Source of the DNA: Anaerolineales bacterium
GTDB taxonomy: Bacteria; Chloroflexota; Anaerolineae; Promineifilales; Promineifilaceae
NCBI GenBank assembly: GCA_020432595.1
Contig: JAGQGA010000086.1
Location: 1-12,869, forward strand
DNA length: 12,869 bases
Direction: 5' to 3'
Shown: positions 545 through 12,869 of the stretch, piece by piece
Numbering within the stretch: position 1 is the first letter of the stretch
Layout of the letters: the number at the start of each line of letters is the position of its first letter
Translations under genes and position numbers: made by a program
The notes under the pieces: model-generated
Seen by the model: the letters and a program-made list of their open reading frames with translations, nothing else
What the model was told of the DNA's origin: nothing
Database searches by the model: none

Positions 545-555
545 AGAAGCATTTA

Positions 556-717: not shown

Positions 718-740
718 TTCAAAAAAAACGAGGTGGCGGC

Positions 741-1733
741 ATGAAGCTGGACGCTCGTGCCTGGGTGGTGTGGGTGGCGGCGTTGCTGTTGCTGGTGCTG
801 ACCACGCGCAATCCGCTTTATTTGCTGCTGCTGTTGTTGGTGACGCGAGCGGTGGCGGCTCACTTTCCAGCTGGCAGCTTTGCGCTGCCGTTGGGACGGT
901 TGGCGGCGGTGATTTTGCTCTTTTCGACGCTGTTTAACTGGCTGCTGGCCCACAGTGGGCAGACGGTGCTGCTGACGCTGCCCGCGTCGTGGCCGTTGGT
1001 GGGGGGACGGTTGGCGCTGGAAACGGCCGTTTTTGGCTTCAGCAATGGCCTTCTCTTGCTCACCCTGCTGGCTCTGTTTGCCACCTTTAGCCAGGTGGTG
1101 GCGGCGGGGGAGCTGGTGCGGCTGACACCACGGGCATTGGTTGATTTGGGGCTGGTGCTGCTGATTGCCCTCACCTATTTGCCGGAGACGGTGCGGCAGC
1201 TTCAGCGCATTCGGGAGGCACAGGCGATTCGCGGCCACCGGCTGCGCGGCTGGCGCGATTGGCGGCCGATTGCCCTGCCGCTGCTGGTGGGCGGGCTGGA
1301 ACGGGCGATGAATTTGGCCGAGGCGATGGTGGCGCGGGGGTATGGGGCGACGATAAGCGTGGGGCAGCCATTGGCAATTCGGCTGCTGCTGACGCTGGGG
1401 CTGGCGCTGGGGTTGGCTGGCTGGCTGCTGACGTTTTGGTGGGCGTGGCTGGGGTGGCTGCTGCTGCTGCTGGGGTTGGGGGGATTAACGGCCGTTCTCT
1501 ACCAGCAAGGCCAGCGCATTCAAACCACCCGTTTTCGCCCGCACCGCCGGGGGTGGCGGGAAACGGTGGTGGTGATAACGGCCGTTTTTCCCCTGCTGCT
1601 CCTCCTCATCCCCTGGCCCTTCCTCCCCCCCGACCTGTTGTTCTACACCCCCTACCCAAAGGCGGTGCTGCCGACTTTTACGCCCTGGGCGGGGTTACTG
1701 TTGACGTTGTATTTGGCTCCGGCGTTGGTTTAG
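741..1733 (+). CDS. ecfT: ECF transporter transmembrane component EcfT
   Basis: Scaffold membrane subunit of the ECF importer, which couples ATP hydrolysis by EcfA to movement of the S component. The 330-residue protein has alternating hydrophobic helices through residues 8-150. It carries the two diagnostic Ala-Arg-Gly type coupling motifs, AIRG at about 162-165 (in REAQAIRGHRL) and ARG at about 198-200 (in AEAMVARGYG), which contact the ATPase grooves in this family. Beyond residue 210 there is a second hydrophobic block and a further C-terminal segment, making it longer than the usual 250-270 residues, as also happens in versions paired with fused ATPases. ATG at 741 follows GAGGTGG, a plausible ribosome binding site. 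Three AACGGCCGTT palindromes lie within the gene. It is followed, after a perfect hairpin, by ecfA. Confidence 0.9.
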   Translation: MKLDARAWVVWVAALLLLVLTTRNPLYLLLLLLVTRAVAAHFPAGSFALPLGRLAAVILLFSTLFNWLLAHSGQTVLLTLPASWPLVGGRLALETAVFGFSNGLLLLTLLALFATFSQVVAAGELVRLTPRALVDLGLVLLIALTYLPETVRQLQRIREAQAIRGHRLRGWRDWRPIALPLLVGGLERAMNLAEAMVARGYGATISVGQPLAIRLLLTLGLALGLAGWLLTFWWAWLGWLLLLLGLGGLTAVLYQQGQRIQTTRFRPHRRGWRETVVVITAVFPLLLLLIPWPFLPPDLLFYTPYPKAVLPTFTPWAGLLLTLYLAPALV

Positions 1734-1735
1734 TG

Positions 1736-1788
1736 GAGATTGGAGATTGGAGATTGCCAACCTTCATCAATCTCCAATCTCCAATCTC
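1736..1788. repeat. Perfect 21-bp hairpin of GATTGGA heptads
   Basis: The arms 1736-1756 and 1768-1788 are exact reverse complements with an 11-nt loop. Each arm is three tandem copies of a 7-nt unit (GATTGGA on the left, TCCAATC on the right). It lies between the ecfT stop (1733) and the ecfA start (1798), directly upstream of a start codon with no recognisable Shine-Dalgarno, so the folded RNA could affect ecfA translation. There is no T-run after it, so it is not a classic terminator. Confidence 0.9.
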
Positions 1789-1797
1789 GTGTTTGCA

Positions 1798-2727
1798 ATG
1801 ATTCAGATCAACCACCTCACCTACACCTACCCCAACCAACTCGCCCCCGCCCTGCAAGACATTTCCTGGCGGGTAGCGGCGGGGGAGTTTGTGCTGCTGA
1901 CCGGGCCGTCGGGGTCGGGCAAAAGCACGCTGCTGCGCTGTTTGAATGGGCTGGTGCCGCATTTTAGCGGCGGCAAGCTGGCGGGGCAGGTGGAGGTGGC
2001 GGGGGTGGATGTGGTGGCGGCGGGGCCACGAGCGTTGAGTCGGCGGGTGGGGTTTGTGATGCAAAGCCCGGAGGCGCAGGCGGTGCTGGATGAGGTGACG
2101 GGGGAGATTGTGTTTGGTATGGAGCAGGCGGCGGTGGCTCCGGCGGAGATGGCGCGGCGGCTGGAGGAGGTGCTGGAACTGTTGGGGTTGGTGGGGTTGC
2201 AGAAACGGCCGTTGCTCACCCTCTCCGGCGGTGAACGGCAGCGCGTTGCCATTGCCGCCGCCCTTGCCCTGCGCCCACAGCTTTTGCTGCTGGATGAACC
2301 GACCAGCCAGCTTGACCCCGAAGCGGCCGACGAGTTGGTGGCGGGGCTGGTGCGGCTGCGGCGGGAATTGGGGCTGACCATTATTTTGGCCGAACACCGG
2401 CTGGCGCGGCTGCTGCCGGTGGTGGATCGTGTTGCCTATATGGAGGCAGGGCAGATTGTGGCCGACGGTGCGGTGCAGGAAGCGCGGGGCGTGGGGCGTG
2501 AGGAATCATCCGCGTTTGTCCGCGTTCGTCCGCGTCCTATTGTGGAAGAAGCAGTGTTGGATGTGCGGAGGATGGTCGTGCGGTACGGCCAGGTGGAGGC
2601 GGTGCGTGGGGTGGATTTGACGGTGGGGCGGGGGGAGGTGGTGGCGGGGGAGGGGGGGGGGGAAGAGTTCGTTGTTGAAGGGAGTGGTGGGGTTGCTGCC
2701 GCTGGCGGGGGGGGAGGTGTGGATTAA
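1798..2727 (+). CDS. ecfA: ECF transporter ATP-binding protein, N-terminal ATPase domain (frameshifted fused EcfA)
   Basis: First nucleotide-binding domain of a two-domain energy-coupling ATPase. From the ATG at 1798 it shows Walker A GPSGSGKST (residues 36-44), Q-loop Gln at 89, signature LSGGERQRV (142-150), Walker B LLLLDEPTS (162-170) and switch His at 200, so the domain looks catalytically intact. After residue 230 a linker encoded by a GTCCGCGTT-type repeat leads into the start of the second domain (VRYGQVEAVRGVDLTVGRGEVVA). The frame then runs into low-complexity G-rich DNA and stops at 2727. The homologous continuation (GKSSLLKG...) is in the next frame. The ATG at 1798 is preferred over an upstream in-frame start at 1747 because the latter would translate the hairpin repeat. 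No clear ribosome binding site precedes it. Confidence 0.85.
   Translation: MIQINHLTYTYPNQLAPALQDISWRVAAGEFVLLTGPSGSGKSTLLRCLNGLVPHFSGGKLAGQVEVAGVDVVAAGPRALSRRVGFVMQSPEAQAVLDEVTGEIVFGMEQAAVAPAEMARRLEEVLELLGLVGLQKRPLLTLSGGERQRVAIAAALALRPQLLLLDEPTSQLDPEAADELVAGLVRLRRELGLTIILAEHRLARLLPVVDRVAYMEAGQIVADGAVQEARGVGREESSAFVRVRPRPIVEEAVLDVRRMVVRYGQVEAVRGVDLTVGRGEVVAGEGGGEEFVVEGSGGVAAAGGGGGVD
2507..2541 (+). repeat. 9-nt-period repeat tract inside ecfA linker
   Basis: Three imperfect tandem copies of a GTCCGCGTT-like unit lie in frame in the region joining the two ATPase domains, encoding the low-complexity stretch AFVRVRPRP. The style resembles the intergenic 9-nt-period repeats elsewhere in the window and not the flanking coding DNA. 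Confidence 0.65.
2652..2662 (+). other. G11 homopolymer at the ecfA frameshift (Walker A of second ATPase domain)
   Basis: Eleven consecutive G, preceded by GGCGGGGGA, lie where the second domain's P-loop should be. Upstream sequence is in frame 1 and downstream GKSSLLK is in frame 2. Compared with the family spacing between the conserved E-V-V-A strand and GKS, about 8 nt are missing, so more than a single slipped G is involved. A sequencing or assembly collapse, a real mutation and a phase-variable tract are all possible. Confidence 0.75.
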
Positions 2728-3277
2728 CGGCCGTTCTACCCAAAACCGCGCCGTGGCCGAACTTTGCCGCGAGGTGGGCTACCTGCCGCAAAACCCCGAT
2801 GATTTGCTCTTTGCCGAGTCTGTGGAGGAGGAGTTTCTGGTGACGCTGCGGAATCATGGATTGCTTGGGAGCGAGGAGGATAATCAAAGATTTCACAGAT
2901 TTCGCAGATGGTGGCAACGTCCCACGCCCCACACCCCACGCCCGACGGATGAGGCCTTTGCAACCATTGCTACGTTGTTGCAGCAGTTGGGATTAACGGC
3001 CGTTTCCCAACACTACCCCCGCGACCTGTCCGTGGGGCAACGGCAGCGAGTGGCGTTGGGGGCGGTAACGGTCACGCAACCAGGGCTGCTTCTGCTAGAT
3101 GAGCCGACGCGGGGGCTGGATGGTGCGGCCAAAGAAGCCTTGGTGGAGATTTGGCGCGGCTGGCAGGCGGCAGGGATGGGGATTTTGCTGGTGACACATG
3201 ATGTAGAATTGGTGGCGGCGGTGGCGGACAGGGTGGTGGTTTTGGCAGCGGGGCAGGTGGTAGATAAGGTGGATTAA
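2663..3277 (+). CDS. ecfA: ECF transporter ATP-binding protein, C-terminal ATPase domain (frameshifted fused EcfA)
   Basis: Second nucleotide-binding domain of the fused EcfA, in a different frame from the first. Read from the AAG of the P-loop at 2663, it begins KSSLLKGVVGLLPLAGGEVWING and continues with Q-loop region GYLPQNPDD, signature LSVGQRQRV (Val replacing the first Gly), Walker B LLLLDEPTRGLD and switch His in LLVTHD. A TTG at 2672 could serve as a start, but no ribosome binding site supports independent translation, so this is most likely the rest of the same gene. Between the VEEEFLVTLRNHGL helix and DEAFATIATLLQQLGL there is an insertion of about 27 residues (rich in R, H, W and P) encoded by repeat DNA at 2881-2943. 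With the first domain the intact product would be about 490 residues, like YkoD-type dual ATPases. Confidence 0.8.
   Translation, partial: KSSLLKGVVGLLPLAGGEVWINGRSTQNRAVAELCREVGYLPQNPDDLLFAESVEEEFLVTLRNHGLLGSEEDNQRFHRFRRWWQRPTPHTPRPTDEAFATIATLLQQLGLTAVSQHYPRDLSVGQRQRVALGAVTVTQPGLLLLDEPTRGLDGAAKEALVEIWRGWQAAGMGILLVTHDVELVAAVADRVVVLAAGQVVDKVD
2881..2943 (+). repeat. In-frame repeat insertion within second EcfA ATPase domain
   Basis: An AGATTTCAC/AGATTTCGC 9-nt-period tract (2881-2910) is followed by a CCCACGCCCCACACC-like tract (2920-2943). Together they encode about 20 residues absent from the normal ABC ATPase helical region. The base composition differs sharply from the G-rich flanks. Length and frame are compatible with continued translation. 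Confidence 0.65.
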
Positions 3278-3284
3278 CAGAATA

Positions 3285-3456
3285 GGACACAGATTTACCT
3301 GATTTACCTGATTTCTTTCTTAGGAAGTACCTATACAGGGGTCATACCCGCGAAAGCGGGTATCCATCTTCAGCCTAGGCATGGATTCCCGCCTTCGCGG
3401 GAATGACAGCCCTTTTTTATAGAGTTATATCAGGAATATCAGGCAAATCTGCGTCC
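3285..3456. repeat. Nested composite inverted repeat between ecfA and the adenosyltransferase gene
   Basis: The outer arms 3285-3314 and 3427-3456 are imperfect inverted copies of a 9-nt-period GATTTACCT sequence (about 25 of 30 positions). The inner pair, 3341-3366 and 3382-3407, is GTCATACCCGCGAAAGCGGG and its inverted partner TGGATTCCCGCCTTCGCGGG, each a hairpin with a 4-nt loop. The architecture is the same as at 556-717, but the outer arms belong to another family. It accounts for most of the 200-bp gap. Confidence 0.8.
3385..3418 (+). terminator. Possible Rho-independent terminator within repeat
   Basis: An 8-bp stem ATTCCCGC/GCGGGAAT with CTTC loop (3385-3404) is followed, after 8 nt, by a run of six T (3413-3418). 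It could end the ECF transcript, but the spacer is long and the stem is a repeat core found elsewhere without a T-run. Confidence 0.3.
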
Positions 3457-3468
3457 CATTGCTCTTAA

Positions 3469-3475
3469 AAGGTGA
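3469..3475 (+). promoter_or_regulatory. Ribosome binding site deciding the adenosyltransferase start
   Basis: AAGGTGA, four nt before the ATG at 3480. It selects this start over the in-frame ATG at 3459, whose extra residues (MLLKGEE) would come from the ribosome binding site itself. Confidence 0.7.
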
Positions 3476-3479
3476 AGAG

Positions 3480-4043
3480 ATGCCGAGATTGACAAAAATT
3501 TACACGCGGAAAGGGGACGACGGCTCAACGGGGTTGGGCGGCGGGCAGCGGGTGGGGAAAGATTCGCTGCGGGTGCAGGCGTATGGGACGGTGGATGAGC
3601 TGAACTCCTGCTTGGGGGTGGCATTGGCGCACGGACTGTGTACTCGGCTGGCGACGCTGCTGCCGACCATTCAAAATGAGTTGTTCCATCTGGGTTCAGA
3701 TTTGTGTATTCTGGAAGAAGACAAGGTGAAATATGCGATTCCTCAGATTGAAGAACGGCACGTTGTAGCGTTGGAAAAGATGATTGATGAATGCAATGAG
3801 GTTGTGGGGCCGCTGGAGAATTTTATTTTGCCCGGCGGGTCGGTGGGGGCGGCAAATTTGCACGTGGCGCGGACGGTGTGCCGCCGTGCTGAGCGTGAGG
3901 TGATTGCCTTGGGGCGGCTTGAGCCGATTGGGGCGTTTGTCATTCCCTACCTGAATCGCCTGTCGGATGCGTTGTTTGTGATGGCGCGGCTGGAGAACTT
4001 TGAGCGCGGCGTGGCGGAACCCTTGTGGGACAAGTTGGCATAA
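3480..4043 (+). CDS. pduO: PduO-type cob(I)alamin adenosyltransferase
   Basis: Transfers the 5'-deoxyadenosyl group of ATP to cob(I)alamin, giving adenosylcobalamin in the cytoplasm. The 187-residue protein is full length for the family. It shows the N-terminal ATP loop [12 protein letters not shown] (8-19), GTVDELNS (36-43), FHLGSDL (69-75), FILPGG (115-120), the catalytic helix [11 protein letters not shown] (130-140, with R131, R135, R136 and E138 corresponding to residues conserved in human MMAB) and NRLSDALFV (159-167). These motifs leave little doubt. It lies about 200 bp downstream of the ECF genes on the same strand, separated by a repeat element, and may be transcribed with them or from its own promoter. 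The pairing suggests that the ECF system brings in a corrinoid this enzyme finishes. No cobalamin riboswitch was recognised upstream. Confidence 0.95.
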
Positions 4044-4054
4044 GGGGGTAAAAT

Positions 4055-4121
4055 CGGTAAACAGTCATCAGTAAACAGTCATCAGTGATTGGTTATTGGT
4101 TTTACTGATTACCGATTACTG
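4055..4121. repeat. AATCAGT-type heptad repeat with tandem 14-mer
   Basis: GTAAACAGTCATCA occurs twice in tandem (4057-4070 and 4071-4084). It is followed by ACTGATTACCGATTACTG at 4104-4121, which is the exact reverse complement of the 18-mer at 5729-5746. The unit is 7 nt (AATCAGT/AATCGGT). This fills most of the 134-bp gap before the CcmD-like gene. Confidence 0.75.
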
Positions 4122-4177
4122 ACTACTGGATCATGTGATTATTTGCGTGGGATCGCTTAAAATGGAGAGGTAGAAAG

Positions 4178-4333
4178 ATGTTTGAGAGTTTACCGCTGAT
4201 TGCGGTGGTGATTATCTTGCTTTGGTTGGCTGTTTTTGTTTACTATCTCACCACGTCGCGTTCACAACAGACGTTGGAGCAAGAGATTGAAGCGTTGAAA
4301 AAAATTTTGGATGATGACGAGAAACATACCTAA
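4178..4333 (+). CDS. Small membrane protein, CcmD-like
   Basis: A 51-residue peptide starting MFESLPLIAVVIILLWLAVFVYYL. One transmembrane helix (about residues 6-24) is followed by a basic linker (TTSRSQQ) and a charged helix EQEIEALKKILDDDEK that could form a short coiled coil. This order, one membrane helix then a basic short coiled coil, is that of CcmD-family cytochrome c maturation peptides, but no other ccm gene is in the window and the family is defined by little sequence, so the name is tentative. GGAGAGG at 4164-4170 sits 7 nt before the ATG, good evidence that it is translated. Its 3' end overlaps the start of the following lipoprotein gene by 23 nt, implying translational coupling. 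Confidence 0.6.
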   Translation: MFESLPLIAVVIILLWLAVFVYYLTTSRSQQTLEQEIEALKKILDDDEKHT

Positions 4334-4988
4334 ATTTGGCCGATTGTTTGTTGTGTTCTTGCTGCTGGGGCTGCTGCTGGGTGGTTGTTCGCTGCTGCCA
4401 TCGGGCGAGGATGCGTGTGTGACGGCGGGCTCCCTGTTTGAGGATGATTTTGAGGCGGGGGATGCGTGTGGCTGGACGCTGTATAACCAGGGTGGCGTGG
4501 TGGCGGATATTGCCGACGGGGTGCTGCAAATTACCACGAGCCAGCCGGGGCAGATTGGCTGGGCGAATACGCGGCGCAGCTTTGATGATGTGGTGATTAC
4601 GGTGCAGGCGCGGCAAACGGCGGGGCCAAATAATAATGCGTATGGGGTGGTGTGTCGTTATCAGAATGCGTCGAATTTTTATCTGTTTTTGGTGAGTGGG
4701 GACGGATATTATGCCATTGGCAAATACCAGTCGGGCAGTGACCAAATTTCCTATTTAACGCCGGATGGGAAGTATCAATTTTCGGATGTGATCAACCAGG
4801 GGGTTGCGACGAACCAACTGCGGGTAAGCTGTGTGGGGAATGAGTTGAGCCTGGCGGTGAATGGGCTGTTGCTGCTGACGGTGACGGATACGACGTTTGT
4901 GACGGGTGATATTGGGTTGGGGGTGAGTACGTTTGAGCCAGGAACGGCCGTTGTTGCCTTTGATAATGTGCGGGTGACGGCTCCGTAA
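4311..4988 (+). CDS. Lipoprotein with LamG/DUF1080-like beta-sandwich domain (paralogue 1)
   Basis: A 225-residue secreted lipoprotein. Residues 1-26 form a lipoprotein signal: basic N-region MMTRNIPKFGR, hydrophobic core FVVFLLLGLLL, lipobox LGGC with Cys26 as the acylation site. The remainder is beta-rich with no obvious catalytic residues. It has blocks LFEDDFEAGD...GW, YGVVCRYQNASNFYLFLVSGDG, VINQGVATNQLRV, LSLAVNGLLLLTV and a closing VAFDNVRVTAP, the pattern of concanavalin-like domains of the DUF1080/glycoside-hydrolase-16-like type that may bind glycans. All these blocks recur in the next gene. ATG at 4311 overlaps the CcmD-like gene; ATG 4314 is an equally good start. The cell-envelope location is firm; the ligand is unknown. 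Confidence 0.75.
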   Translation: MMTRNIPKFGRLFVVFLLLGLLLGGCSLLPSGEDACVTAGSLFEDDFEAGDACGWTLYNQGGVVADIADGVLQITTSQPGQIGWANTRRSFDDVVITVQARQTAGPNNNAYGVVCRYQNASNFYLFLVSGDGYYAIGKYQSGSDQISYLTPDGKYQFSDVINQGVATNQLRVSCVGNELSLAVNGLLLLTVTDTTFVTGDIGLGVSTFEPGTAVVAFDNVRVTAP

Positions 4989-5000
4989 GAAGGGATTGAA

Positions 5001-5051
5001 GATTGGCGATTGGAGATTTAAGGTTTCCAATCGCCAATCTCTAATCGCCAA
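5001..5051. repeat. GATTGGCGATTGGA inverted repeat between lipoprotein genes
   Basis: GATTGGCGATTGGA (5001-5014) and TCCAATCGCCAATC (5026-5039) are exact reverse complements, with an 11-nt loop. A further partial copy extends to about 5055. It is the same heptad family as the hairpins at 1736 and 12348. An in-frame ATG at 4996 would translate it, so it is not the start of the next gene. Confidence 0.85.
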
Positions 5052-5070
5052 TCTCCATTTGGGTAAGAGC

Positions 5071-5727
5071 ATGAAGCGAATAATGACCTGCCTGTTGGTG
5101 CTGTTGCTGGTGGGCTGCGGGGGCGGCGAGGAGCAAGCTGATGTGGCTCGGCCACAACTGGATGCCAATACGCTGTTTTATGACAATTTTGCGCCGGGGC
5201 AGACGGGGGCGTGGCTGTTGGAGCAGGATGAGGTGGGGAAAACGGCCGTTCTCAACGAACAGCTTATCATCGAAATCAACGCGCCTAACACTGTGCAGTA
5301 CAGTGCCTTGGCTAATGAGTTGTTTGACAATTTTACGCTGACGGTGGACGTGAGCCAGCTTCAGGGGAGCCTGGACAGCAGCTATGGGGTGCTGTTTCGC
5401 ATGGTTAGCCCGGAGCAGTTTTACCGCTTTGCCATGACCGGCGAGGGAACGTTTGTGGTGGAGCGGCGGGATAACGGCCGTTGGCTGCGTCTGAGCGATG
5501 ATTGGCCGATTGCGCCGCCTATTAACCAGGGGCTGAATGTGGCGAATGAGATCAAAATAACGGCCGTTAATGACACCCTCACCTTTTTTGTCAATGGCAT
5601 CGAAGTGCAGCAGGTAACAGACAGCACCTATTCACTGGGCGGCATTGCCCTTGATGCGGGGACGTTTGGGCACACGGGGCTGCAGGTGGCGTTTGACAAT
5701 GTGCAGGTGTCGCGGGTTGGACAGTAG
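5071..5727 (+). CDS. Lipoprotein with LamG/DUF1080-like beta-sandwich domain (paralogue 2)
   Basis: A 218-residue lipoprotein. MKRIMTCLLVLLLVGC is a short signal peptide with lipobox LVGC (Cys16), followed by a flexible GGGEEQAD linker. The domain aligns block by block with the upstream gene: LFYDNFAPG..GAW for LFEDDFEAGDACGW, YGVLFRMVSPEQFYRFAMTGEG for YGVVCRYQNASNFYLFLVSGDG, PINQGLNVANEIKI, LTFFVNGIEVQQVTDSTYSLGGIAL, and VAFDNVQVSRV. This marks the two as diverged tandem duplicates. It carries three AACGGCCGTT copies. GTAAGAGC before the ATG is only a weak ribosome binding site. Function is unknown beyond an envelope-anchored beta-sandwich, perhaps carbohydrate binding. Confidence 0.75.
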   Translation: MKRIMTCLLVLLLVGCGGGEEQADVARPQLDANTLFYDNFAPGQTGAWLLEQDEVGKTAVLNEQLIIEINAPNTVQYSALANELFDNFTLTVDVSQLQGSLDSSYGVLFRMVSPEQFYRFAMTGEGTFVVERRDNGRWLRLSDDWPIAPPINQGLNVANEIKITAVNDTLTFFVNGIEVQQVTDSTYSLGGIALDAGTFGHTGLQVAFDNVQVSRVGQ

Positions 5728-5842: not shown

Positions 5843-5847
5843 AAGAA

Positions 5848-6693: not shown

Positions 6694-6899
6694 CCGAACT
6701 TTACCAGTCGGGAATGATGGTGGAGATTCGTTTTGGCGATGATGAGCAGTGGTGGCTGGGGCAGGTTGTGGGGCATCAGCCGCCGGGTGTGTGGGTGCAG
6801 ACGGTAAACGGCCGTTACTGGTTTGTCACAAACGGCCGTCGGATTCAGCGACAACGATTGGACGCAGATTCGCCTAGTGAAAAAACCACATCAGGTTAA
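6678..6899 (+). CDS. Small hypothetical protein with SH3-like composition
   Basis: A 73-residue ORF overlapping the TPR gene end by 16 nt. The central part, VEIRFGDDEQWWLGQVVGHQPPGVWVQTVNGRYWFVTNGRRI, looks like a small beta-barrel of SH3 type with many aromatic residues. An in-frame ATG at 6714 could be the real start, giving 61 residues. The last 12 or so residues and the stop codon are supplied by a repeat (ACGCAGATT...AATCAGGTAAATCTGCGT), so the ancestral C-terminus may have been replaced. One exact and one near-exact AACGGCCGTT lie in it. The function is not recognised. Confidence 0.5.
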   Translation: MARRLTELYQSGMMVEIRFGDDEQWWLGQVVGHQPPGVWVQTVNGRYWFVTNGRRIQRQRLDADSPSEKTTSG

Positions 6900-6915: not shown

Positions 6916-6931
6916 TCTAATTCTTATAAAG

Positions 6932-7660
6932 ATGCAACCAGAAGTGGCGCAGCAGTTGCGCGAGTTGAACCAAAAATTTTATGCAAGCTTGGCGGATCCG
7001 TTTGCGCGGACGCGGGCGAATCCGCATCCCGGGTTTTTTGCCATGCTGCCGTTTTTGCCGGAGCGGTGTGAGGCGGTGCTGGATGTGGGGTGCGGAAACG
7101 GCCGTTTTGGTCACTTTCTCCAGCAGCATCACCCCGTTACGCGCTATGTGGGGGTAGATTTTACGGTGGAACTGCTGGCAAAAGGGGCGGAAATGCTGCC
7201 CAACGCCACCTTCTTGCCCCGCGACATGAGCCGCGCCGACTGTTTGGACGGGTTGGGGGCGTTTGATTTGGTGGTCTGCTTGGCGGCCATGCACCATTTG
7301 CCGGGGCGTGAGAACCGGGTGCGGCTGCTGCAAGGGATGCGGCGGGTGTTGCTGCCCGGCGGCCGGATTATCTTGTCCAACTGGCAGTTTATGGACAGCG
7401 AACGGCAGCAGCGCAAGGTGCGCGACTGGTCGGAGATTGGGTTGACGGCGGCGGATGTGGACGAAACGGATTATTTGCTGACGTGGCGGCACGATGGCTT
7501 TGGGTTGCGTTATGTGGCGATGATTGATGAGGCAGAAACGGCCGTTATGGCCGCTGCCGCCGAACTACAGGTCATTGGACAATTTCGCAGCGATGGCAAG
7601 GAAGGCAACCTGAGCCTTTACACCGTTTTGCAGCCAGACGAGGGAACTGATGCAGCTTGA
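6932..7660 (+). CDS. Class I SAM-dependent methyltransferase, Trm9-like
   Basis: A 242-residue Rossmann-fold methyltransferase. Motif I VLDVGCGNGRFG (49-60) binds S-adenosylmethionine. The acidic strand YVGVDFT (72-78), post-I strand FDLVVCLAAMHHLPG (111-125) and VLLPGGRIILSNWQF (139-153) follow in canonical order. The GCGNGR motif and the C-terminal pattern DYLLTWRHDG...RYVAMIDE...GNLSLYTVL resemble the Trm9/ABH8 group that methylates carboxymethyluridine in tRNA anticodons. This makes a tRNA or small-molecule O-methyltransferase plausible, but the substrate is not proven. The ATG at 6932 lies just after a repeat, with no clear ribosome binding site. Its end overlaps the next gene by 11 nt. 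The motif I codons contain AACGGCCGTT. Confidence 0.85.
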   Translation: MQPEVAQQLRELNQKFYASLADPFARTRANPHPGFFAMLPFLPERCEAVLDVGCGNGRFGHFLQQHHPVTRYVGVDFTVELLAKGAEMLPNATFLPRDMSRADCLDGLGAFDLVVCLAAMHHLPGRENRVRLLQGMRRVLLPGGRIILSNWQFMDSERQQRKVRDWSEIGLTAADVDETDYLLTWRHDGFGLRYVAMIDEAETAVMAAAAELQVIGQFRSDGKEGNLSLYTVLQPDEGTDAA

Positions 7661-8042
7661 GAATCCCATTGTGCAGCTTTGTATGCAGGGAACCAACGCG
7701 GAATTTCGCGGTGAATTACAGCAGGCCTATGCTTTGTACCAGAAGGCATGGGACATGGCACACGATGATTATGAGGCGTGTGTAGCTGCCCATTATCTGG
7801 GCCACATTTTAATGCGTTTGGAGGCACCCCCGCGAGAAAGGCTGTATTGGCACCAGGAGGCACTGCGGCGGGCAGATCGCGTGGCTGATGAGCGCGTTGA
7901 GTCGTTTTACCCTTCGCTCTACATCAACTTGAAGCGTTGTCATGAGCTTTTGGGCGACCGGGAAGAGGTGCTGCGGTATGACAAATTGGTCAGGGGGTTG
8001 GTTGACACCGACCTTGCCAATGCTACAATGATGCGTGAATAG
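7650..8042 (+). CDS. Tetratricopeptide-like helical protein
   Basis: A 130-residue all-helical cytoplasmic protein. Its conserved blocks are NPIVQLCMQGTNAEFRGELQ, AYALYQKAWDMAHDDYEACVAAHYLGH, HQEALRRADRVADERVESFYPSLYINLKRCHELLGD. I recognise this as a small family found in Actinobacteria and Chloroflexota and usually annotated as TPR or hypothetical; no catalytic residues are evident. AGGGA at 7641-7645 precedes the ATG, which overlaps the methyltransferase end, so translational coupling is likely and the two may work together. The biochemical role is unknown. Confidence 0.75.
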   Translation: MQLENPIVQLCMQGTNAEFRGELQQAYALYQKAWDMAHDDYEACVAAHYLGHILMRLEAPPRERLYWHQEALRRADRVADERVESFYPSLYINLKRCHELLGDREEVLRYDKLVRGLVDTDLANATMMRE

Positions 8043-8060
8043 GGGTACTATTGAGTACCT

Positions 8061-8065
8061 GGAGG
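8061..8065 (+). promoter_or_regulatory. Ribosome binding site deciding the yqeY start
   Basis: GGAGG five nt before the ATG at 8071. It rules out the in-frame ATG at 8035, which would add 12 poorly conserved residues and overlap the preceding gene. Confidence 0.8.
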
Positions 8066-8070
8066 TTATC

Positions 8071-8514
8071 ATGAGTTTGAAGCAGCAGTTGCAAGATGAT
8101 TTAAAAGAAGCGATGCGCGGCGGTGATGCGGCGCGGCGTGATGTGTTGCGGTTAATGATGGCCGCCATTAAGCAGGCCGAAGTGGACGGCCAGAAGACCC
8201 TGGATGATGCCGGGGTGCAGGAGGTGCTGACCAAACAGGCCAAGCAGCGGCGTGAAAGTATTACTGATTATGAAAATGCAGGGCGGGCAGATTTGGCGGC
8301 TGGGGAACAGGCAGAATTGACGATTATTGAGGTGTATTTGCCGCAGATGATGTCTGAGGCTGAGGTGCGGGCAGTCGCCGCGACACTGATTGCTGAGTTG
8401 GGTGTGACGGATGCCAAGGGGATGGGGCAGGTAATGGGGCGTTTGATGGCGCAGTTGAAGGGGAAAGCCGACGGCCGTTTGGTTAATCAGGTTGTGCGTG
8501 ACCTGCTGCAATAG
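8071..8514 (+). CDS. yqeY: GatB/YqeY domain protein
   Basis: A 147-residue protein, typical of the YqeY family, which shares the helical tail domain of the GatB subunit of tRNA-dependent amidotransferase; its own role is still unclear. Visible family features are LKQQLQDDLKEAMRGGDAARRDVLRLMMAAIKQAE at the N-terminus, QAKQRRESITDYENAGRADLAAGEQAELTIIEVYLPQMMSEAEV in the middle, and GVTDAKGMGQVMGRLMAQLKGKADGRLVNQVVRDLL at the end. It is complete and ends 8 nt before pgpH, with which it commonly clusters in Gram-positive bacteria and Chloroflexota. A near-copy of the palindrome (GACGGCCGTT) lies at 8470-8479. Confidence 0.95.
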   Translation: MSLKQQLQDDLKEAMRGGDAARRDVLRLMMAAIKQAEVDGQKTLDDAGVQEVLTKQAKQRRESITDYENAGRADLAAGEQAELTIIEVYLPQMMSEAEVRAVAATLIAELGVTDAKGMGQVMGRLMAQLKGKADGRLVNQVVRDLLQ

Positions 8515-8522
8515 CCCAAATC

Positions 8523-10715
8523 ATGACCATCAACCGGATAGAGCGCGACAAGAGCGGTAACGGCCGTTTGCGTGACCTGGCAAAAGGGTCATTGCTGTGG
8601 CTGTTTGTAACCGTGTTGACGGTAGGGATGACCCTGATTTTAGTCATTAACTACGGTGGCAGCGCTGAGGTGATGGTCGAATTGGGCAAACCAGCTCCCG
8701 AAAACGTCTATGCGCCCCGCGCCGTTGATTACCAGAGTGAGATTTTAACGGCTCAGGCCAAGGAAGACGCGGCCAACGCCGTGGAAGTGGAATACACGCC
8801 GTTTGACCTCAGCATTCGCCGCGAGCAGTTGCGTGATGCTCGCGCTATTTTTGCCTTTATTGACGTGGTGCGAGCCGATTTATACGCTAACGAAGCCGAG
8901 AAGCTCACGGTTTTGGGCGTGATTGAAGGGGTGACGATTGAGGCAGAGGTAGGGAAGGCGGTGCTGGTGCTGGATACGGCGCAGTATGAGCAAACCAAGA
9001 CGGAGATTATTGGCACCATTGATGAGCTGATGCGGCGGGAGATTCGGCCGGATGAGCTAAGTGCGGTGAGGCGTTCAGCACGACAGTCGCCTAACCCGGA
9101 TTTGACACCCACGCAGGAAACGGCCGTTACCAACCTCGCCCCCCAATTTATCGTCGCCAACGTGTTTCCTAACGTCGAAGCGACCACCCAGAAGCGTGAA
9201 GACGCAACTGCCGCCGTTGAGCCGCGCCATCGTATTGTGCTGGAAGGGCAGCAGATTCTCCAGACGGGCGACATCGTGACCGACGAAGACATTGAAATCT
9301 TGACCGAGCTGGGTTTGCTGCGCCCCGACCGCGATTGGCGCGATATTGCCAGCCTGTTTATGGCCTCCCTGCTATCTTCCGTTCTCATTACCCTCTATTG
9401 GCAGCAGTTCCACCGCGAATTTGCCGTCAAAGCGCGTTATTTGGGCGTTCTGCTCACCATCACCTTTTTCTTCACTATTGCAGCGCGGGTGATGGTCACA
9501 ACACCTGTCCTGCTTTACTGGTACCCCATTGCCGCCATGTCCATGCTGCTGGCCGTCATTTTTGAAACGCGGTTGGCAATTATGATAACCGTTGTCATCG
9601 CTTCCATTGTTGGCTTTATTGCCCCCAATTCGCTGGAACTGGTGGTTTATCTGGCGGCCGGCGGCATCATGTCGGTGCTGACGCTGCGTGATGCACAGCG
9701 GGTAACGGCCTTTTTCCGCGCCGGGCTGGCGGGAGCACTAGGGCATGTCTTTGTGCTGCTGGTCTTCCGGCTGCCGCAAAATGTGGATGGGCTGCTTTTG
9801 CTACAGCAAATCTTTTTTGCGGTGGGCAATGGCATCCTCTCGGCGGCACTTACCCTGGTTGGTTTCTATATTTTGGGCAGCCTGTTTGGGGTAATTACCA
9901 TCTTGCAACTGCAAGATTTGTCCCGTTTGGATCATCCTTTACTGCAACAACTGCTGCGCCGGGCACCGGGTACCTATCACCACAGCCTGATTGTGGCGAA
10001 TTTGGCGGAGCAGGCGGCGGAGCGAACGGGGGCTAACAGTACGCTGGTGCGCGTGGGGGCGTTTTATCATGATGTGGGCAAGATGAACCGCCCACCCTTT
10101 TTTACCGAGAACCAGGAGGGGGTAAACCCCCACGATTCGCTAGACCCATATACCAGTGCCCGTATTATTGCCAGCCACGTCACTGATGGTTTGGAACTGG
10201 CGCGGCGTTATCGGCTGCCTAACCGAATTCAGCAGTTTATTGCCGAACATCACGGTCAACGGTTGATTAAGGGGTTTTATTTTAAGGCACTTGAACAGGC
10301 GGGTGGCGATGAAAGCCAGGTTGACAAGGAGAAGTTCCGCTATGCTGGCCCGCGCCCACGCACGCGGGAGTCGGGGATTGTGATGCTGGCGGATGCGGTG
10401 GAGGCCACATCAAGTGCGCTGCGCCCGAACACGGAAAAGGCGATTGAAAAGCTGGTCAATTCGATTGTGGATGATGATTTGATGGAGGGGCAGCTTGATG
10501 ATTCCGGGTTGACGCTGGGGGATTTGCGGCTGATTCGGGCATCGTTTATTGAGACGCTCAAGGGGCGTTTTCACGTGCGGGTGAAATACCCGGGTAATGA
10601 AGCACTGGAAGAAGGGGGAGCCGTGGCGGCTTTACCGGCTGGTAATGTGGTTGAACTTGCTGAAACGGCCGTTTTGCCCGTACCCCCACAACCAGTACCA
10701 ATGGAAAGATCATGA
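8523..10715 (+). CDS. pgpH: 7TM-HD family phosphohydrolase, cyclic-di-AMP phosphodiesterase PgpH/YqfF
   Basis: A 730-residue membrane protein that hydrolyses cyclic-di-AMP to pApA in characterised homologues. Domain order is classical. There is one N-terminal transmembrane helix (about 24-45) and an extracytoplasmic 7TMR-HDED region (about 50-270), containing VELGKPAPENVYAPRAVDY near its start. Then come a cluster of about seven membrane helices (about 275-470) and a cytoplasmic HD domain. HD residues visible are HH at 486-487, the His-Asp pair H516-D517 in FYHDVGKM, H552 in SHVTDGLE, and H576-H577 in EHHGQRLIKGFY, all in the spacing expected for a bimetal site. Length and domain order match the family. 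It overlaps ybeY by 4 nt. Three AACGGCCGTT copies lie inside, one near each end. Confidence 0.95.
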   Translation: MTINRIERDKSGNGRLRDLAKGSLLWLFVTVLTVGMTLILVINYGGSAEVMVELGKPAPENVYAPRAVDYQSEILTAQAKEDAANAVEVEYTPFDLSIRREQLRDARAIFAFIDVVRADLYANEAEKLTVLGVIEGVTIEAEVGKAVLVLDTAQYEQTKTEIIGTIDELMRREIRPDELSAVRRSARQSPNPDLTPTQETAVTNLAPQFIVANVFPNVEATTQKREDATAAVEPRHRIVLEGQQILQTGDIVTDEDIEILTELGLLRPDRDWRDIASLFMASLLSSVLITLYWQQFHREFAVKARYLGVLLTITFFFTIAARVMVTTPVLLYWYPIAAMSMLLAVIFETRLAIMITVVIASIVGFIAPNSLELVVYLAAGGIMSVLTLRDAQRVTAFFRAGLAGALGHVFVLLVFRLPQNVDGLLLLQQIFFAVGNGILSAALTLVGFYILGSLFGVITILQLQDLSRLDHPLLQQLLRRAPGTYHHSLIVANLAEQAAERTGANSTLVRVGAFYHDVGKMNRPPFFTENQEGVNPHDSLDPYTSARIIASHVTDGLELARRYRLPNRIQQFIAEHHGQRLIKGFYFKALEQAGGDESQVDKEKFRYAGPRPRTRESGIVMLADAVEATSSALRPNTEKAIEKLVNSIVDDDLMEGQLDDSGLTLGDLRLIRASFIETLKGRFHVRVKYPGNEALEEGGAVAALPAGNVVELAETAVLPVPPQPVPMERS

Positions 10716-11203
10716 GCTATAACATTGAAGTGCAGGTATCGTGTGATGTTGGCAAAAGTAAACCAAGCGAAGTTCGTTCGCTGTTGGTGGGCGCAGCCGT
10801 GCAGACGTTGCAGCAGCAGGGGATTACACCGCCGGCTGATTTGACCATTTTGCTGACTGATGACGAGCAGATTCAGCAGTTTAACCGGGATTATCGCGGT
10901 GTGGACAGCCCAACAGATGTCTTGAGTTTTCCGGCCGGGGAGCCGCTGCTGGAACTGGTTGATCTAGACCCATACCTAGGTGACATTGCGGTGTCGGTTC
11001 CGTTTGCCGAACGACAGGCAGCGCAGGCGGGGCATGATCTGCTGGCCGAGCTACAGCTTTTGGTGGTGCATGGGGTGCTGCATTTGCTGGGGCATGATCA
11101 TGCTGATGCAGAGGAAAAAGCGGCGATGTGGGGGGCACAAACGGCCGTTCTCTCTGCCCTCAGTCTGGGTCACATCATCCCCACCGAAAGCGAACATGAT
11201 TGA
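10712..11203 (+). CDS. ybeY: Endoribonuclease YbeY (rRNA maturation factor)
   Basis: A 163-residue metal-dependent RNase needed for 16S rRNA 3'-end maturation and ribosome quality control. The zinc motif HGVLHLLGHDH at residues 120-130 supplies H120, H124 and H130; the tyrosine often seen before the last Asp-His is His here. Upstream the family signature FNRDYRGVDSPTDVLSFP and the GDIAVSV strand are both present. ATG at 10712 overlaps the pgpH stop (ATGA), and the end overlaps dgkA by 8 nt, so expression must be coupled. Complete and of normal length. Confidence 0.95.
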   Translation: MSYNIEVQVSCDVGKSKPSEVRSLLVGAAVQTLQQQGITPPADLTILLTDDEQIQQFNRDYRGVDSPTDVLSFPAGEPLLELVDLDPYLGDIAVSVPFAERQAAQAGHDLLAELQLLVVHGVLHLLGHDHADAEEKAAMWGAQTAVLSALSLGHIIPTESEHD

Positions 11204-11597
11204 ACAAGGCCGCCACGAATTCTACAGCCGCATCCGTAGCTTTGGCTATGCTTTTGAAGGGTGGTGGTATGTGCTGAAAACTCAGCACAACGCCTGGATT
11301 CATGCGGTGGTGACGGTGATTATAACGGCCGTTGGGCTATGGCTAAAAATTCCTCGGCGCGATTGGGTCGTATTGGTGCTAACCTTTATGGCCGTCTGGA
11401 TGGCTGAGTTTATGAACACCGCCATCGAAGCCGTGGTGGACATGAACACACGCGATCACCATCCGCTGGCAAAAGTTGCCAAGGACGTAGCCGCCGCCGC
11501 CGTGCTGGTGGGGGCGTGCGGGGCCGTCCTCATCGGTTTGTTGATTCTTGGCCCCCCCCTTTGGGTCAAGCTTTTTCCCGCTGTACGTATGCCGTAA
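11196..11597 (+). CDS. dgkA: Diacylglycerol kinase / undecaprenol kinase family protein
   Basis: A 133-residue integral membrane kinase phosphorylating diacylglycerol or, in Gram-positive relatives, undecaprenol. The protein starts with an amphipathic helix (SRIRSFGYAFEGWWYVLKTQHNAWIHA), then TM1 (about 36-51), TM2 (about 57-73) with the catalytic segment AEFMNTAIEAVVDMN (70-84, Glu71 and Glu78), a cytoplasmic HHPLAKVAKDVAAAAVL motif with Asp97, and TM3 (about 100-119). The ATG at 11196 lies inside the ybeY end; an earlier in-frame start at 10980 would only be the ybeY sequence in another frame. Its last 32 nt overlap the opposing SRPBCC gene. It closes the operon. Confidence 0.93.
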   Translation: MIEQGRHEFYSRIRSFGYAFEGWWYVLKTQHNAWIHAVVTVIITAVGLWLKIPRRDWVVLVLTFMAVWMAEFMNTAIEAVVDMNTRDHHPLAKVAKDVAAAAVLVGACGAVLIGLLILGPPLWVKLFPAVRMP

Positions 11598-12024
11598 TAT
11601 TTTCCATTTCCTGCTTATAAATACGGCGCATCACTGGCGGCGTTATCCATTTTTCGATTAGCCCGCCCAGCCCCGGCTTTTGCGGCATGTGGGTGGTGAA
11701 GGTTAATTCCGTTTGGCTGCCGTTGGCATGGGGCTTAAAGATAAAATCGGTGTAGACCCCAGTTGCCCGATCTTTCTCTCGCAGCAGTTTGCCCGGTTCT
11801 GGCTCGGTCACGTCCATGTGGTATTCCACTTTTACCCCCATTACTTCCATGGGAAAGCGAATGACGCTGCCCGCGCCAAAGCCGCCGGCCTCCACGGTGA
11901 GGTCGCCAAAATAGGGTTTGGGCAAAATGGCGGGATGCCCCACCTTGTAATCGGCAATGACCCCGTGCACATTAGCGGGTGGCGCGGGAATGATGCTTGA
12001 GTAACTAACTTGATAAAAACGCAT
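11566..12024 (-). CDS. SRPBCC family protein
   Basis: A 152-residue single-domain protein of the START/Bet v 1-like helix-grip superfamily, which encloses hydrophobic ligands. It begins MRFYQVSYSSIIPAPPANVHGVIADYKVGHPAILP, the usual strand 1 plus helix pattern, continues with GGFGAGSVIRFPMEVMGVKVEYHMDVTEPEPGKLLREKD and a TELTFTTHM strand, and closes with a long C-terminal helix (GLIEKWITPPVMRRIYKQEMENITAYVQ). The ligand is unknown. AAGGA on the minus strand at 12032-12036 supports the start at 12024 over one 24 nt further upstream. It follows the small gene at 12063 by 38 nt on the same strand. Confidence 0.85.
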   Translation of the reverse strand: MRFYQVSYSSIIPAPPANVHGVIADYKVGHPAILPKPYFGDLTVEAGGFGAGSVIRFPMEVMGVKVEYHMDVTEPEPGKLLREKDRATGVYTDFIFKPHANGSQTELTFTTHMPQKPGLGGLIEKWITPPVMRRIYKQEMENITAYVQREKA

Positions 12025-12031
12025 GATCTTT

Positions 12032-12036
12032 TCCTT
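12032..12036 (-). promoter_or_regulatory. Ribosome binding site for the SRPBCC gene
   Basis: AAGGA on the minus strand, seven nt ahead of the ATG whose first base is 12024. It decides that start. Confidence 0.6.
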
Positions 12037-12062
12037 GTCAGGTGACAATCACTTGCCACCTG

Positions 12063-12275
12063 CTATTGGTTACCTGTTTTCTTAGGATTGAGTGCCAGCA
12101 GCGTTAACCCCAGATCGCGGCAGCGGAGGATGAGGCCGTAGAGGGTAGCTTGGTCGCTATTAACGGCCGTTAACACCGTGTTCCCATCTGCCTCGTGTTG
12201 CAGCACCACATTGCCAAACCAGGCCGCATAGCTGGGGTCAAGCTGACCCTTGACTGTGAGTTCGTAATCCATCAT
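12063..12275 (-). CDS. Conserved small hypothetical protein
   Basis: Seventy or 71 residues (two adjacent Met codons, 12275 and 12272), starting MDYELTVKGQLDPSYAAWFGNVVLQHEADGNTVLTAVNSDQATLYGLILRCRDLGLTLLALNP. I recognise the pattern GQLD..AAWF...L.H...G.T.L.....DQA.L.GL....RDLGL.L...N as a small protein common in Chloroflexota and other soil bacteria, always annotated hypothetical. The predicted alternation of strands and helices suggests a compact alpha/beta fold. A longer frame back to 12407 exists, but its first 44 residues are translated hairpin repeat and proline-rich low complexity, so I reject that start. It contains AACGGCCGTT inside LTAVNSD. Probably co-transcribed with the SRPBCC gene. 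Confidence 0.75.
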   Translation of the reverse strand: MMDYELTVKGQLDPSYAAWFGNVVLQHEADGNTVLTAVNSDQATLYGLILRCRDLGLTLLALNPKKTGNQ

Positions 12276-12347
12276 TGGCTGTAGTGTAGCTGATTTTGGG
12301 GTGGGTGTGACCTGCCAGGGGGTGGGAAAAGGGGGTGGGAAATAGGG

Positions 12348-12410
12348 AGATTGGCGATTAGAGATTGGAGATTGAGGTTTGGGCAATCTCCAATCTCTAA
12401 TCGCCAATCT
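12348..12410. repeat. Perfect 27-bp hairpin of GATTGGA/GATTAGA/GGCGATT heptads
   Basis: The arms 12348-12374 and 12384-12410 are exact reverse complements over 27 bp with a 9-nt loop (AGGTTTGGG). The unit is 7 nt with variants GATTGGC, GATTAGA and GATTGGA. It starts 3 nt beyond the LuxR-type gene's stop and lies before the small gene. It is the longest perfect palindrome in the window and could stabilise the 3' end of the regulator mRNA. Confidence 0.92.
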
Positions 12411-12413
12411 TGT

Positions 12414-12869
12414 TTACCCAAACAGACCGAGTTCCCGTGCGCGGGCGATGGCTTGGGAGCGATTGCGGACGTGGAGCTTGCTGTAGAGGGTGTTGATGTA
12501 CCATTTGACGGTGCTGGGGGCGAGGGTGAGGGTGGCGGCGATTTCCTGGTTGGATTGCCCGGCGACCAGCAGCCGCAGCACGTCCTGTTCGCGGGGGGTG
12601 AGGGGGTCAATGAGGGGTGGGGGCATGGTAGGGGAGGAGGCAGCGGTGGGAAAAACGGCCGTTTTCCCCACCAACTCCCCCATTTCCCGCGCAAACGGCG
12701 GCGCGTCTGGCCGCTGGCACCATTGTGCCAACAAAGGCCGCAAACCAGGTGCCAAACTCAAAAAAGGATAGCGGCGGTTTTCTTCGGCAGCCATTTCCAC
12801 CGCCTGAGCCAGGGCAAGCTGGGTGTGGTGGCTGCTGCCCTGGGCGTGGCGAGCCAGTGCCAGCAGGAG
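12414..12869 (-). CDS. LuxR-family (MalT-like) transcriptional regulator, 3' end only
   Basis: C-terminal 151 residues of a regulator whose frame is still open at the window edge. The first visible part (LLALARHAQGSSHHTQLALAQAVEMAAEENRRYPFL...LRPLLAQ) is helical and looks like the end of a TPR-type sensor region, as in MalT/LAL regulators with an N-terminal ATPase. A linker of about 20 low-complexity residues (GKTAVFPTAASSPTMPPP), containing AACGGCCGTT, leads to a full GerE/LuxR helix-turn-helix: LTPREQDVLRLLVAGQSNQEIAATLTLAPSTVKWYINTLYSKLHVRNRSQAIARARELGLF. It presumably binds DNA as a dimer; the inducer and targets cannot be read here. The hairpin at 12348 begins just past the stop. Confidence 0.9.
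   Translation of the reverse strand, partial: LLLALARHAQGSSHHTQLALAQAVEMAAEENRRYPFLSLAPGLRPLLAQWCQRPDAPPFAREMGELVGKTAVFPTAASSPTMPPPLIDPLTPREQDVLRLLVAGQSNQEIAATLTLAPSTVKWYINTLYSKLHVRNRSQAIARARELGLFG

What the first reader, a model, noticed from the sequence alone, without database searches (positions are those of the whole stretch)
1022..12663. HIP1-like hyper-abundant palindrome AACGGCCGTT
Twenty exact copies of one 10-bp perfect palindrome in 12.9 kb, where random sequence of similar composition would give about 0.01-0.02. The density resembles HIP1 (GCGATCGC) in cyanobacteria, but the word differs. Functionally unrelated genes on both strands carry it, so it is a genome-level feature such as a methylation, repair, segregation or uptake mark, or a mutationally maintained word, and not a regulon operator.
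Basis: partly seen in the sequence, partly recalled or inferred. Interest (0 to 1): 0.9.

Follow-up and report, generated by a model that had tools for sequence, protein, structure and literature searches.

The report
Genome-wide repeated palindrome in Chloroflexota
A group of little-known Chloroflexota bacteria, and viruses that seem to infect them, carry one short mirror-image DNA word over and over across the genome, at places that evolution tends to keep fixed, much like a long-unsolved puzzle known from cyanobacteria but with a different word.

Summary
In detail: 20 exact AACGGCCGTT in 12.9 kb, expected 0.01. The window's own genome is not held, but relatives show a genome-level feature. 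Of 396 Chloroflexota genomes sampled from one class, 19 carry 396-5060 copies (reversed control 2-38); the others carry at most 149. The unit is ACGGCCGT around a CGGCCG core. Its outer base pair is lineage-specific, and sister lineages use GCGGCCGC or bare CGGCCG. Sites are kept beyond protein constraint: 210 of 212 same-amino-acid codons inside the word are unchanged where 171 are expected, and the excess is significant in 10 of 18 genome pairs. Viral contigs with portal or terminase genes carry it at similar density. This is a HIP1-like element in another phylum with another core. I think a CGGCCG-specific enzyme, probably a methyltransferase, reads it as a DNA-maintenance mark. A ~660-aa methyltransferase family (A1) occurs in 17 of the 19, and lies next to a NurA nuclease gene in 6 of 16 word-rich genomes examined. 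A1 also occurs without the word, and shared ancestry leaves the link untested. Function is unproven.

The parts
1022..1031 (.). AACGGCCGTT copy 1, in ECF transporter T component (CbiQ-like)
   Evidence: exact match; CbiQ Pfam hit
1487..1496 (.). copy 2, in ECF T component
1577..1586 (.). copy 3, in ECF T component
2204..2213 (.). copy 4, in ABC ATPase
   Evidence: ABC_tran
2726..2735 (.). copy 5, in ABC ATPase second half (after a frame break)
2995..3004 (.). copy 6, in ABC ATPase second half
4943..4952 (.). copy 7, in lipoprotein-like gene (named by eye)
5241..5250 (.). copy 8, in lipoprotein-like gene (named by eye)
5473..5482 (.). copy 9, in lipoprotein-like gene (named by eye)
5559..5568 (.). 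copy 10, in lipoprotein-like gene (named by eye)
6807..6816 (.). copy 11, the only intergenic copy by the hand gene models
7097..7106 (.). copy 12, in SAM methyltransferase-domain gene
7537..7546 (.). copy 13, in the same methyltransferase-domain gene
8559..8568 (.). copy 14, in 7TM-HD phosphohydrolase (PgpH-like, named from recalled motifs) gene
9119..9128 (.). copy 15, in PgpH-like gene
10664..10673 (.). copy 16, in PgpH-like gene
11140..11149 (.). copy 17, in ybeY
11324..11333 (.). copy 18, in diacylglycerol kinase gene
12162..12171 (.). copy 19, in minus-strand ORF 12063-12407
12654..12663 (.). copy 20, in minus-strand LuxR-type regulator gene
6832..6839 (.). ACGGCCGT octamer without the A..T outer pair
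   Evidence: the two odd outer pairs are listed
8471..8478 (.). ACGGCCGT octamer without the A..T outer pair
   Evidence: the two odd outer pairs are listed

Best explanation
It is a highly iterated palindrome (HIP) of a Chloroflexota lineage, of the same kind as cyanobacterial HIP1 but with another word. Shown: a CGGCCG core in a preferred ACGGCCGT frame; one octamer per about 0.5-1 kb in 18 of 19 word-rich genomes; in genes and between them; in all codon registers; kept at individual positions beyond protein constraint; outer bases that switch between lineages; and presence in phage-like contigs at similar density. Inferred: the word is read by a sequence-specific DNA enzyme whose hexamer core is CGGCCG, most likely a DNA methyltransferase. 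The candidate is the ~660-aa PF01555-type family 'A1', in 17 of 19 word-rich genomes and in several of them next to a NurA nuclease gene; an m5C enzyme may stand in for it in some A1-less lineages. The modified or bound sites would act as a dense mark for DNA maintenance (repair or recombination steering, or telling own from foreign DNA), and losing a site is selected against or repaired back.
For: Counts: 19 of 396 genomes with 396-5060 AACGGCCGTT against reversed control 2-38, and 2982-14867 ACGGCCGT. In 420 kb of one genome ACGGCCGT ranks first of the 8-mers by z (819 seen, 28.7 expected). In that genome one-off variants are in excess mainly at the outer bases (TCGGCCGT 4.0x, GCGGCCGT 1.9x, CCGGCCGT 1.2x; inner positions 0.4-1.0x except one transition at 2.0x on 13 counts), as the abstract of PMC4390886 reports for HIP1. 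Protein-guided alignments: same-amino-acid codons inside the word identical 210/212 (171.0 expected), 50/61 (27.6), 44/51 (22.9); window against G378 14/16 (7.1), G159 20/27 (10.2), G368 14/16 (7.2); 10 of 18 pairs with p under 0.05. Coding 1.97 and intergenic 1.58 per kb in one genome. Variants around one core: GCGGCCGC in G006, bare CGGCCG in G141, G279, G351, G201. A1 in 17 of 19 word-rich genomes against 31 of 377 others (Fisher 2e-15). A1 is followed by a NurA-domain gene (PF09376, two tested) in 6 of 16 word-rich genomes examined (G357, G388, G373, G296, G211, G378) and in G006, and lies about 3.7 kb from one in G393; 0 of 16 A1-bearing genomes without the octamer or GCGGCCGC excess showed it in the flanks held. 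NurA works in DNA end resection with HerA (recalled). The A1 model is confident (pLDDT 85); its PDB matches are weak, of class I methyltransferase type, CcrM and an N4-cytosine DNA methyltransferase among them.
Against: No methylation was measured. A1 was not found in G008 and G279, nor in G141, G201 and G351. It is present in 31 of 377 genomes without the octamer excess, and of four further genomes G004 has it and G002 and G005 have pieces. On the tree only 2 independent contrasts exist, so the A1-word link could be shared ancestry; the same holds for the NurA neighbourhood, whose flanks held differ in length between genomes and which is absent beside A1 in G363, G345 and G251 (neighbours Dus and LysM in G363). 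Outside the word-bearing lineages A1 often goes without CGGCCG excess (CGGCCG/GCCGGC 0.34 in G285, 0.19 in G245). In 8 of 18 pairs the codon-level excess is not significant; two show essentially none (G363-G357 14/24 against 12.5; G006-G363 3/10 against 3.1), and pairs are counted in both directions, so p values are too small. The one-off test on 62 kb of G006 showed no clear outer-base bias (few counts). Spacing is near random at 1 kb and clumped at 5 kb.
Confidence: 0.5

Rival explanations
1. By-product of biased repair: a methylation-linked mismatch-repair bias creates and protects the word on any DNA copied in the cell, with no benefit from the word itself (the model proposed for HIPs by Elhai 2015).
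For: Phage-like contigs carry it too; one-off variants in excess at the outer bases in G363, as the model predicts (PMC4390886 section 3.4 part 1); lineages switch flanks.
Against: Individual sites survive down to about 62-72% nucleotide identity, which asks for very strong protection; 16 of 19 word-rich genomes exceed 1.1 octamers per kb, up to 2.1, while that model expects about 1 per kb.
Confidence: 0.2
2. A recombination or exonuclease-protection signal of Chi type, working in both directions because it is a palindrome, recognised by the DNA end-resection machinery and also useful to phages.
For: Dense, intragenic, site-conserved, shared with phage-like contigs; A1 next to a NurA nuclease gene in 6 of 16 word-rich genomes and G006.
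Against: Known Chi sequences are not palindromes and are oriented with replication (recalled); spacing here is not evened out; NurA is not beside A1 in G363, G345, G251.
Confidence: 0.18
3. A nucleoid or chromosome-organisation site bound by an abundant architectural protein.
For: Genome-wide, intragenic, conserved; a role of this kind has been argued for HIP1 (Xu et al. 2018, recalled; its selection result is cited in a passage of PMC6604393).
Against: Phage-like contigs carry it at similar density; periodicity of 10-90 kb was not tested.
Confidence: 0.08
4. DNA-uptake sequence of a naturally competent lineage.
For: Abundance, intragenic location and conservation resemble DUS/USS (recalled).
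Against: Palindromic, and found in phage packaging genes; competence genes were not examined.
Confidence: 0.03
5. Local artefact: one odd contig, a mobile repeat or a protein motif.
For: None found.
Against: Genome-wide in 19 of 396 genomes, three codon registers, sites align with few gaps.
Confidence: 0.01

Closest known systems
HIP1 (GCGATCGC) of cyanobacteria
   Same: Hyper-abundant GC-rich palindrome, about one per kb; excess one-off variants at the outer bases; methyltransferases with core specificity implicated (PMC4390886 abstract); maintenance by selection inferred (passage of PMC6604393 citing Xu et al. 2018).
   Different: Other phylum, other core (CGGCCG instead of CGATCG; GCGATCGC is absent from the window), lineage-specific outer bases extending the word to 10 bp, presence in phage-like contigs (I did not check cyanophages).
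Alternate HIPs of cyanobacteria (GGCGCC, GCSGC, RCCGGY, TCGATCGA, GGGATCCC; PMC4390886 sections 2.3 and 2.5.3)
   Same: Replacement of one HIP by another in single lineages; word within the range of a resident methyltransferase's site.
   Different: Here one core recurs across a Chloroflexota group while flanks change; none of the listed words is CGGCCG.
M.Ssp6803II, GGm4CC methylation in Synechocystis (PMC6560206, abstract read)
   Same: GGCC core; a methyltransferase linked to replication and repair.
   Different: Specificity GGCC; no sequence comparison with A1 was made.
DUF1156 / PF01555 DNA methylases
   Same: The three A1 proteins tested exceed the PF01555 cut-off (40.8-53.6 against 26.7 bits) and match NF042963 locally.
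   Different: NF042963 score 67-76 against cut-off 1000, so A1 is not that equivalog.

Membership tests
HIP1 sensu stricto | word GCGATCGC | tested here: not met
   0 GCGATCGC in the window
HIP class (HIP1 and alternates) | GC-rich palindrome over-represented genome-wide | tested here: met
   in relatives; own genome not held
HIP class (HIP1 and alternates) | about 500-2500 per million bases (PMC4390886 section 2.3) | tested here: met
   514-2102 ACGGCCGT per Mb genome-wide in the 19; window 1710
HIP class (HIP1 and alternates) | coding and intergenic, no preferred peptide | tested here: met
   1.97 and 1.58 per kb; registers 400, 255, 92 (one genome, crude gene calls)
HIP class (HIP1 and alternates) | one-off variants biased to first and last base | tested here: met
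   met in G363; unclear in G006 (few counts)
HIP class (HIP1 and alternates) | resident methyltransferase for the core | tested here: inconclusive
   A1 in 17 of 19, but specificity unknown and phylogeny confounds
HIP class (HIP1 and alternates) | sites conserved beyond coding constraint (Xu et al. 2018, recalled) | tested here: met
   significant in 10 of 18 pairs
HIP class (HIP1 and alternates) | 10-90 kb periodicity (Xu et al. 2018, recalled) | not tested
   only 420 kb of one contig was held
Chi | asymmetric, oriented octamer (recalled) | tested here: not met
   perfect palindrome
DNA uptake sequence | preferential uptake by competent cells | not testable with these tools
   needs an experiment
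Restriction site | avoided in host and phage | tested here: not met
   over-represented in both
NF042963 DUF1156 anti-phage protein (for A1) | score over 1000 bits | tested here: not met
   67-76 bits in 3 proteins

The most novel reading that the evidence does not exclude
The word is a licence of self: the host spares or repairs DNA that carries enough CGGCCG-core words (through a methyltransferase and NurA-type end processing) and attacks or loses DNA that does not, so that phages have been driven to build the host's word, outer bases included, into their packaging genes. This would be the reverse of restriction, where phages shed the site.
Probability: 0.12. Interest if true: 0.93.

Novelty: new variant of a known kind. 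Interest (0 to 1): 0.75.

Why it matters
The function of HIP1 has long been unsolved and, as far as I know, was studied in one phylum. A second case in Chloroflexota, with natural switches of flank, lineages with weak or no excess, a candidate enzyme that in part sits beside a resection nuclease gene, and phages that carry the word, gives contrasts that cyanobacteria alone do not. It makes the methylation, repair-bias, recombination and chromosome-organisation models testable. It also suggests that oligomer-based binning and host prediction in this group partly read this word (inference).

Tried and rejected
Rejected: protein motif (three registers), mobile insertion (sites align with few gaps), single-contig artefact, restriction site (over-represented). 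Cytosine-5 methyltransferase PF00145 as the universal partner: no hit in 8 of the 19 word-rich genomes. The m5C enzymes of G141, G351, G075 and G144 are 59-71% identical and G279's is 43-45% to them, but G144 has no CGGCCG excess and G201 has no PF00145 hit, so this link is weak. A test of A1 against the word with independent pairs had only 2 contrasts. A viral scan for A1, limited to two peptide patterns, gave 8 loci with only short or distant matches; this is weak evidence that viruses lack it. A control pair pattern of the same composition gave 11 viral stretches, none word-dense, so some chance stretches per scan are expected; 4 of 19 in the A-flank scan look like that. The C-flank scan gave 16 stretches, of which L329 and L334 are dense (over 2 octamers per kb; L319 is 1.5 kb long and holds only the pair itself), and the T-flank scan gave 1, not dense. 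I first called A1 solitary; a check of its neighbours found NurA beside it in several genomes, so I dropped that word. In the ten paper searches of the held open library I saw no paper on a HIP in Chloroflexota (listings only, apart from the four papers opened); the 4 papers that hold the exact 10-mer were judged by title. Xu et al. 2018 and Delaye and Moya 2011 are not held and are cited from recall or from reference lists.
Full report
Observation. The window holds 20 exact AACGGCCGTT; shuffles give 0.01. It holds 22 ACGGCCGT (expected 0.33) and 31 CGGCCG, of which 20 are in the 10-mer while the other 11 are spread over 11 different 10-mers. By hand gene models, 19 of 20 copies are coding, registers 13, 4 and 2. 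Genes of the window include ECF transporter parts, cobalamin adenosyltransferase, YqeY, YbeY, diacylglycerol kinase and a LuxR-type regulator, and a PgpH-like HD protein (named from recalled motifs).

Source. The own genome is not held. A scan with the PgpH-like protein gave 11 loci, 8 of them Chloroflexota by title (Promineifilum, Ardenticatenia, Anaerolineae, 'Chloroflexi bacterium') at 51-57% identity. One of these 8 genomes, G008 ('Anaerolineae bacterium S016_13'), has 3261 copies against 7 of the reversed control; the other seven have 4-19.

Distribution. In a sample of 396 genomes of the class of G008, 19 have 396 to 5060 AACGGCCGTT; the next are 149, 83 and 79, and all others at most 29. 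The same 19 have 2982-14867 ACGGCCGT, or 514-2102 per Mb; next come 1727, 1189 and 657. CGGCCG against GCCGGC adds G006 (13814 to 51), G141 (21019 to 132), G351 (19809 to 1835) and G201 (25568 to 7284). GCCGGC is itself scarce in some of these, so the ratio overstates the excess there. Some further genomes have ratios of 2 to 10 on smaller counts (for example G324, 243 to 25) and were not studied.

Anatomy of the word. Among stretches of 31 sources including the window, the word-rich genomes share ACGGCCGT but differ in the outer pair: A..T in the window (20 of 22), G393 (13 of 18), G008 (40 of 72), G188 (31 of 59); among palindromic outer pairs C..G is commonest in G251, G345, G363, T..A in G231 (7 of 47), G..C in G296 (16 of 90). 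G006 uses GCGGCCGC (1468 per Mb); G141, G279, G351 and G201 have CGGCCG with little flank preference. In 420 kb of G363, ACGGCCGT is the top 8-mer by z (819 against 28.7), with CACGGCCGTG 124 and AACGGCCGTT 42; gaps have CV 1.11, 1-kb bins var/mean 1.05, 5-kb bins 1.71, gaps under 50 bp 48 against 76 expected. Near-miss octamers are in excess mainly at the outer bases in G363; the G006 sample is too small to say.

Sites are kept. With blastn alignments of 14 genome pairs, octamers are kept in 0.43-0.93 of cases against 0.00-0.52 for same-composition control octamers; nucleotide alignment may favour shared words. Protein-guided alignments of 18 pairs agree: at 92% identity 102/107 kept (controls 604/1134); at 67-72% identity 20/29, 24/48, 32/68, 22/50 and 8/19 (controls 0.06-0.11). 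Codons for a conserved amino acid inside the word are unchanged more often than the same codons outside it, with p under 0.05 in 10 of 18 pairs (G388-G357 210/212 against 171.0; window-G378 14/16 against 7.1). Not significant: G241-G296, window-G211, window-G296, window-G241, G363-G241, G008-window (all above expectation), G363-G357 (14/24 against 12.5) and G006-G363 (3/10 against 3.1; 0 of 13 octamers kept, as expected for a genome with another word). Each pair is taken in both directions, so kept sites count twice and the p values are too small.

Family tree. In a tree of 51 PgpH-like proteins (window plus 50 of the 70 genomes with a match out of 75; G188, G231, G373, G141 and G190 had none) the window and 15 octamer-rich genomes fall in one clade of 23 (SH-aLRT 100) that also holds a group of 7, with the two Promineifilum-named genomes G001 and G003, in which the octamer is only 1.9-5.6 times its control. 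G279, G351 and G201 form another group; G006 branches nearby, unresolved. Holding the 16 octamer-rich rows together (window included, G279 not) is not rejected (p-AU 0.27), so one origin with later change of flanks is possible.

Candidate enzyme. PF00145 is missing in 8 of 19 word-rich genomes. A PF01555 search of 9 genomes exposed a ~660-aa protein with motif order DPMMGGGTT then TDPPYFDSVQY. This A1 family has full-family hits (my cut: 420 bits or more, one divergent 470-bit hit in G026 left out) in 48 of 396 genomes; 104 of 396 have some match at 1e-20. It is in 17 of 19 word-rich genomes (G211 in two contigs, G231 with a frame break, G313 cut by a contig end) and 31 of 377 others. G008 and G279 gave none in three searches. 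Of four further genomes G004 has it, G002 and G005 have pieces, G007 none; their octamer counts are 0.5 to 3.1 times control. Phylogenetic contrasts number 2.

Neighbours of A1. In the flanks of A1 held for 33 genomes (16 word-rich, G006, 16 without the excess), a gene like the NurA-domain gene of G357 directly follows A1 on the same strand in G357, G373, G296, G211, G006 and, as a start cut by the contig end, in G378 and G388; in G393 it lies about 3.7 kb on; it was not seen in the 16 without the excess nor in the other nine word-rich ones (PF09376 confirmed for G357 and G296). A second gene of about 215 aa, without a Pfam hit, follows in G357, G296, G211, G006 and, in part, G373. In G363 the neighbours are Dus and LysM proteins. 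Flank lengths differ between genomes, and the genomes are related, so this is suggestive only. It ties A1 to DNA end processing rather than to a restriction enzyme; no dedicated search for restriction enzymes was made. The predicted A1 fold is confident, with weak general methyltransferase matches in the PDB.

Viruses. A pair pattern of the 10-mer found 19 stretches in IMG/VR; 15 have 0.84-3.72 octamers per kb (two of the 15 from one contig), 4 look like chance. In 20 ORFs from six dense stretches, PHROG matches include major head, portal and terminase (L302), terminase and head genes (L292), portal (L293, L306) and terminase small subunit (L288); L291 gave only ATPase, DNA repair, anti-repressor, ParA and FtsK-like matches among the 5 tested. 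Octamers lie inside portal and large terminase genes (3 and 3 in L302; 3 in L292's terminase), none in L302's major head gene. The scan favours dense contigs, so the densities are not a fair sample of phages. L329 shows the C..G form in 10 of 11 octamers. Hosts of these contigs are inferred from the word only.

Reading. The features match the HIP class; exact HIP1 membership fails on the word. I favour a CGGCCG-reading DNA enzyme, probably a methyltransferase, with the sites used in DNA maintenance or self-recognition. Biased repair as a by-product and a Chi-like resection signal are the strongest rivals. From PMC4390886 I saw the abstract, sections 2.3 and 2.5.3 and part 1 of 3.4; from PMC6604393 passages; from PMC6560206 the abstract; from PMC8093824 one passage.

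Noticed in passing
window 2640-2672: The second ABC ATPase half is out of frame with the first at a run of G; likely a sequencing or assembly slip.
   Followed up: partly
window 625-642, 657-674 and 3347-3360: Three copies of CCCGCGAAAGCGGG, each a small hairpin; two lie 32 bp apart in TTCCCGCGAAAGCGGGAA context between genes. Looks like a dispersed REP-like repeat.
   Followed up: no
window 1735-1788, 5048-5056, 7432-7440, 12346-12354: Repeated GGAGATTGG / CCAATCTCC runs, several between genes.
   Followed up: no
G006 and G141, whole genomes: GCCGGC is almost absent (51 in 8.0 Mb, 132 in 4.1 Mb) while CGGCCG is in vast excess; GCCGGC is also scarce in many word-dense viral stretches.
   Followed up: no
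G027, G059, G132, G249, G338, G371: CGGCCG itself is almost absent from several genomes of the same class sample (2-26 copies in 3.3-6.0 Mb), the opposite extreme.
   Followed up: no
L302:10199-11392: A word-bearing phage contig encodes its own DNA methyltransferase-like protein (phrog_498) close to the terminase gene.
   Followed up: no
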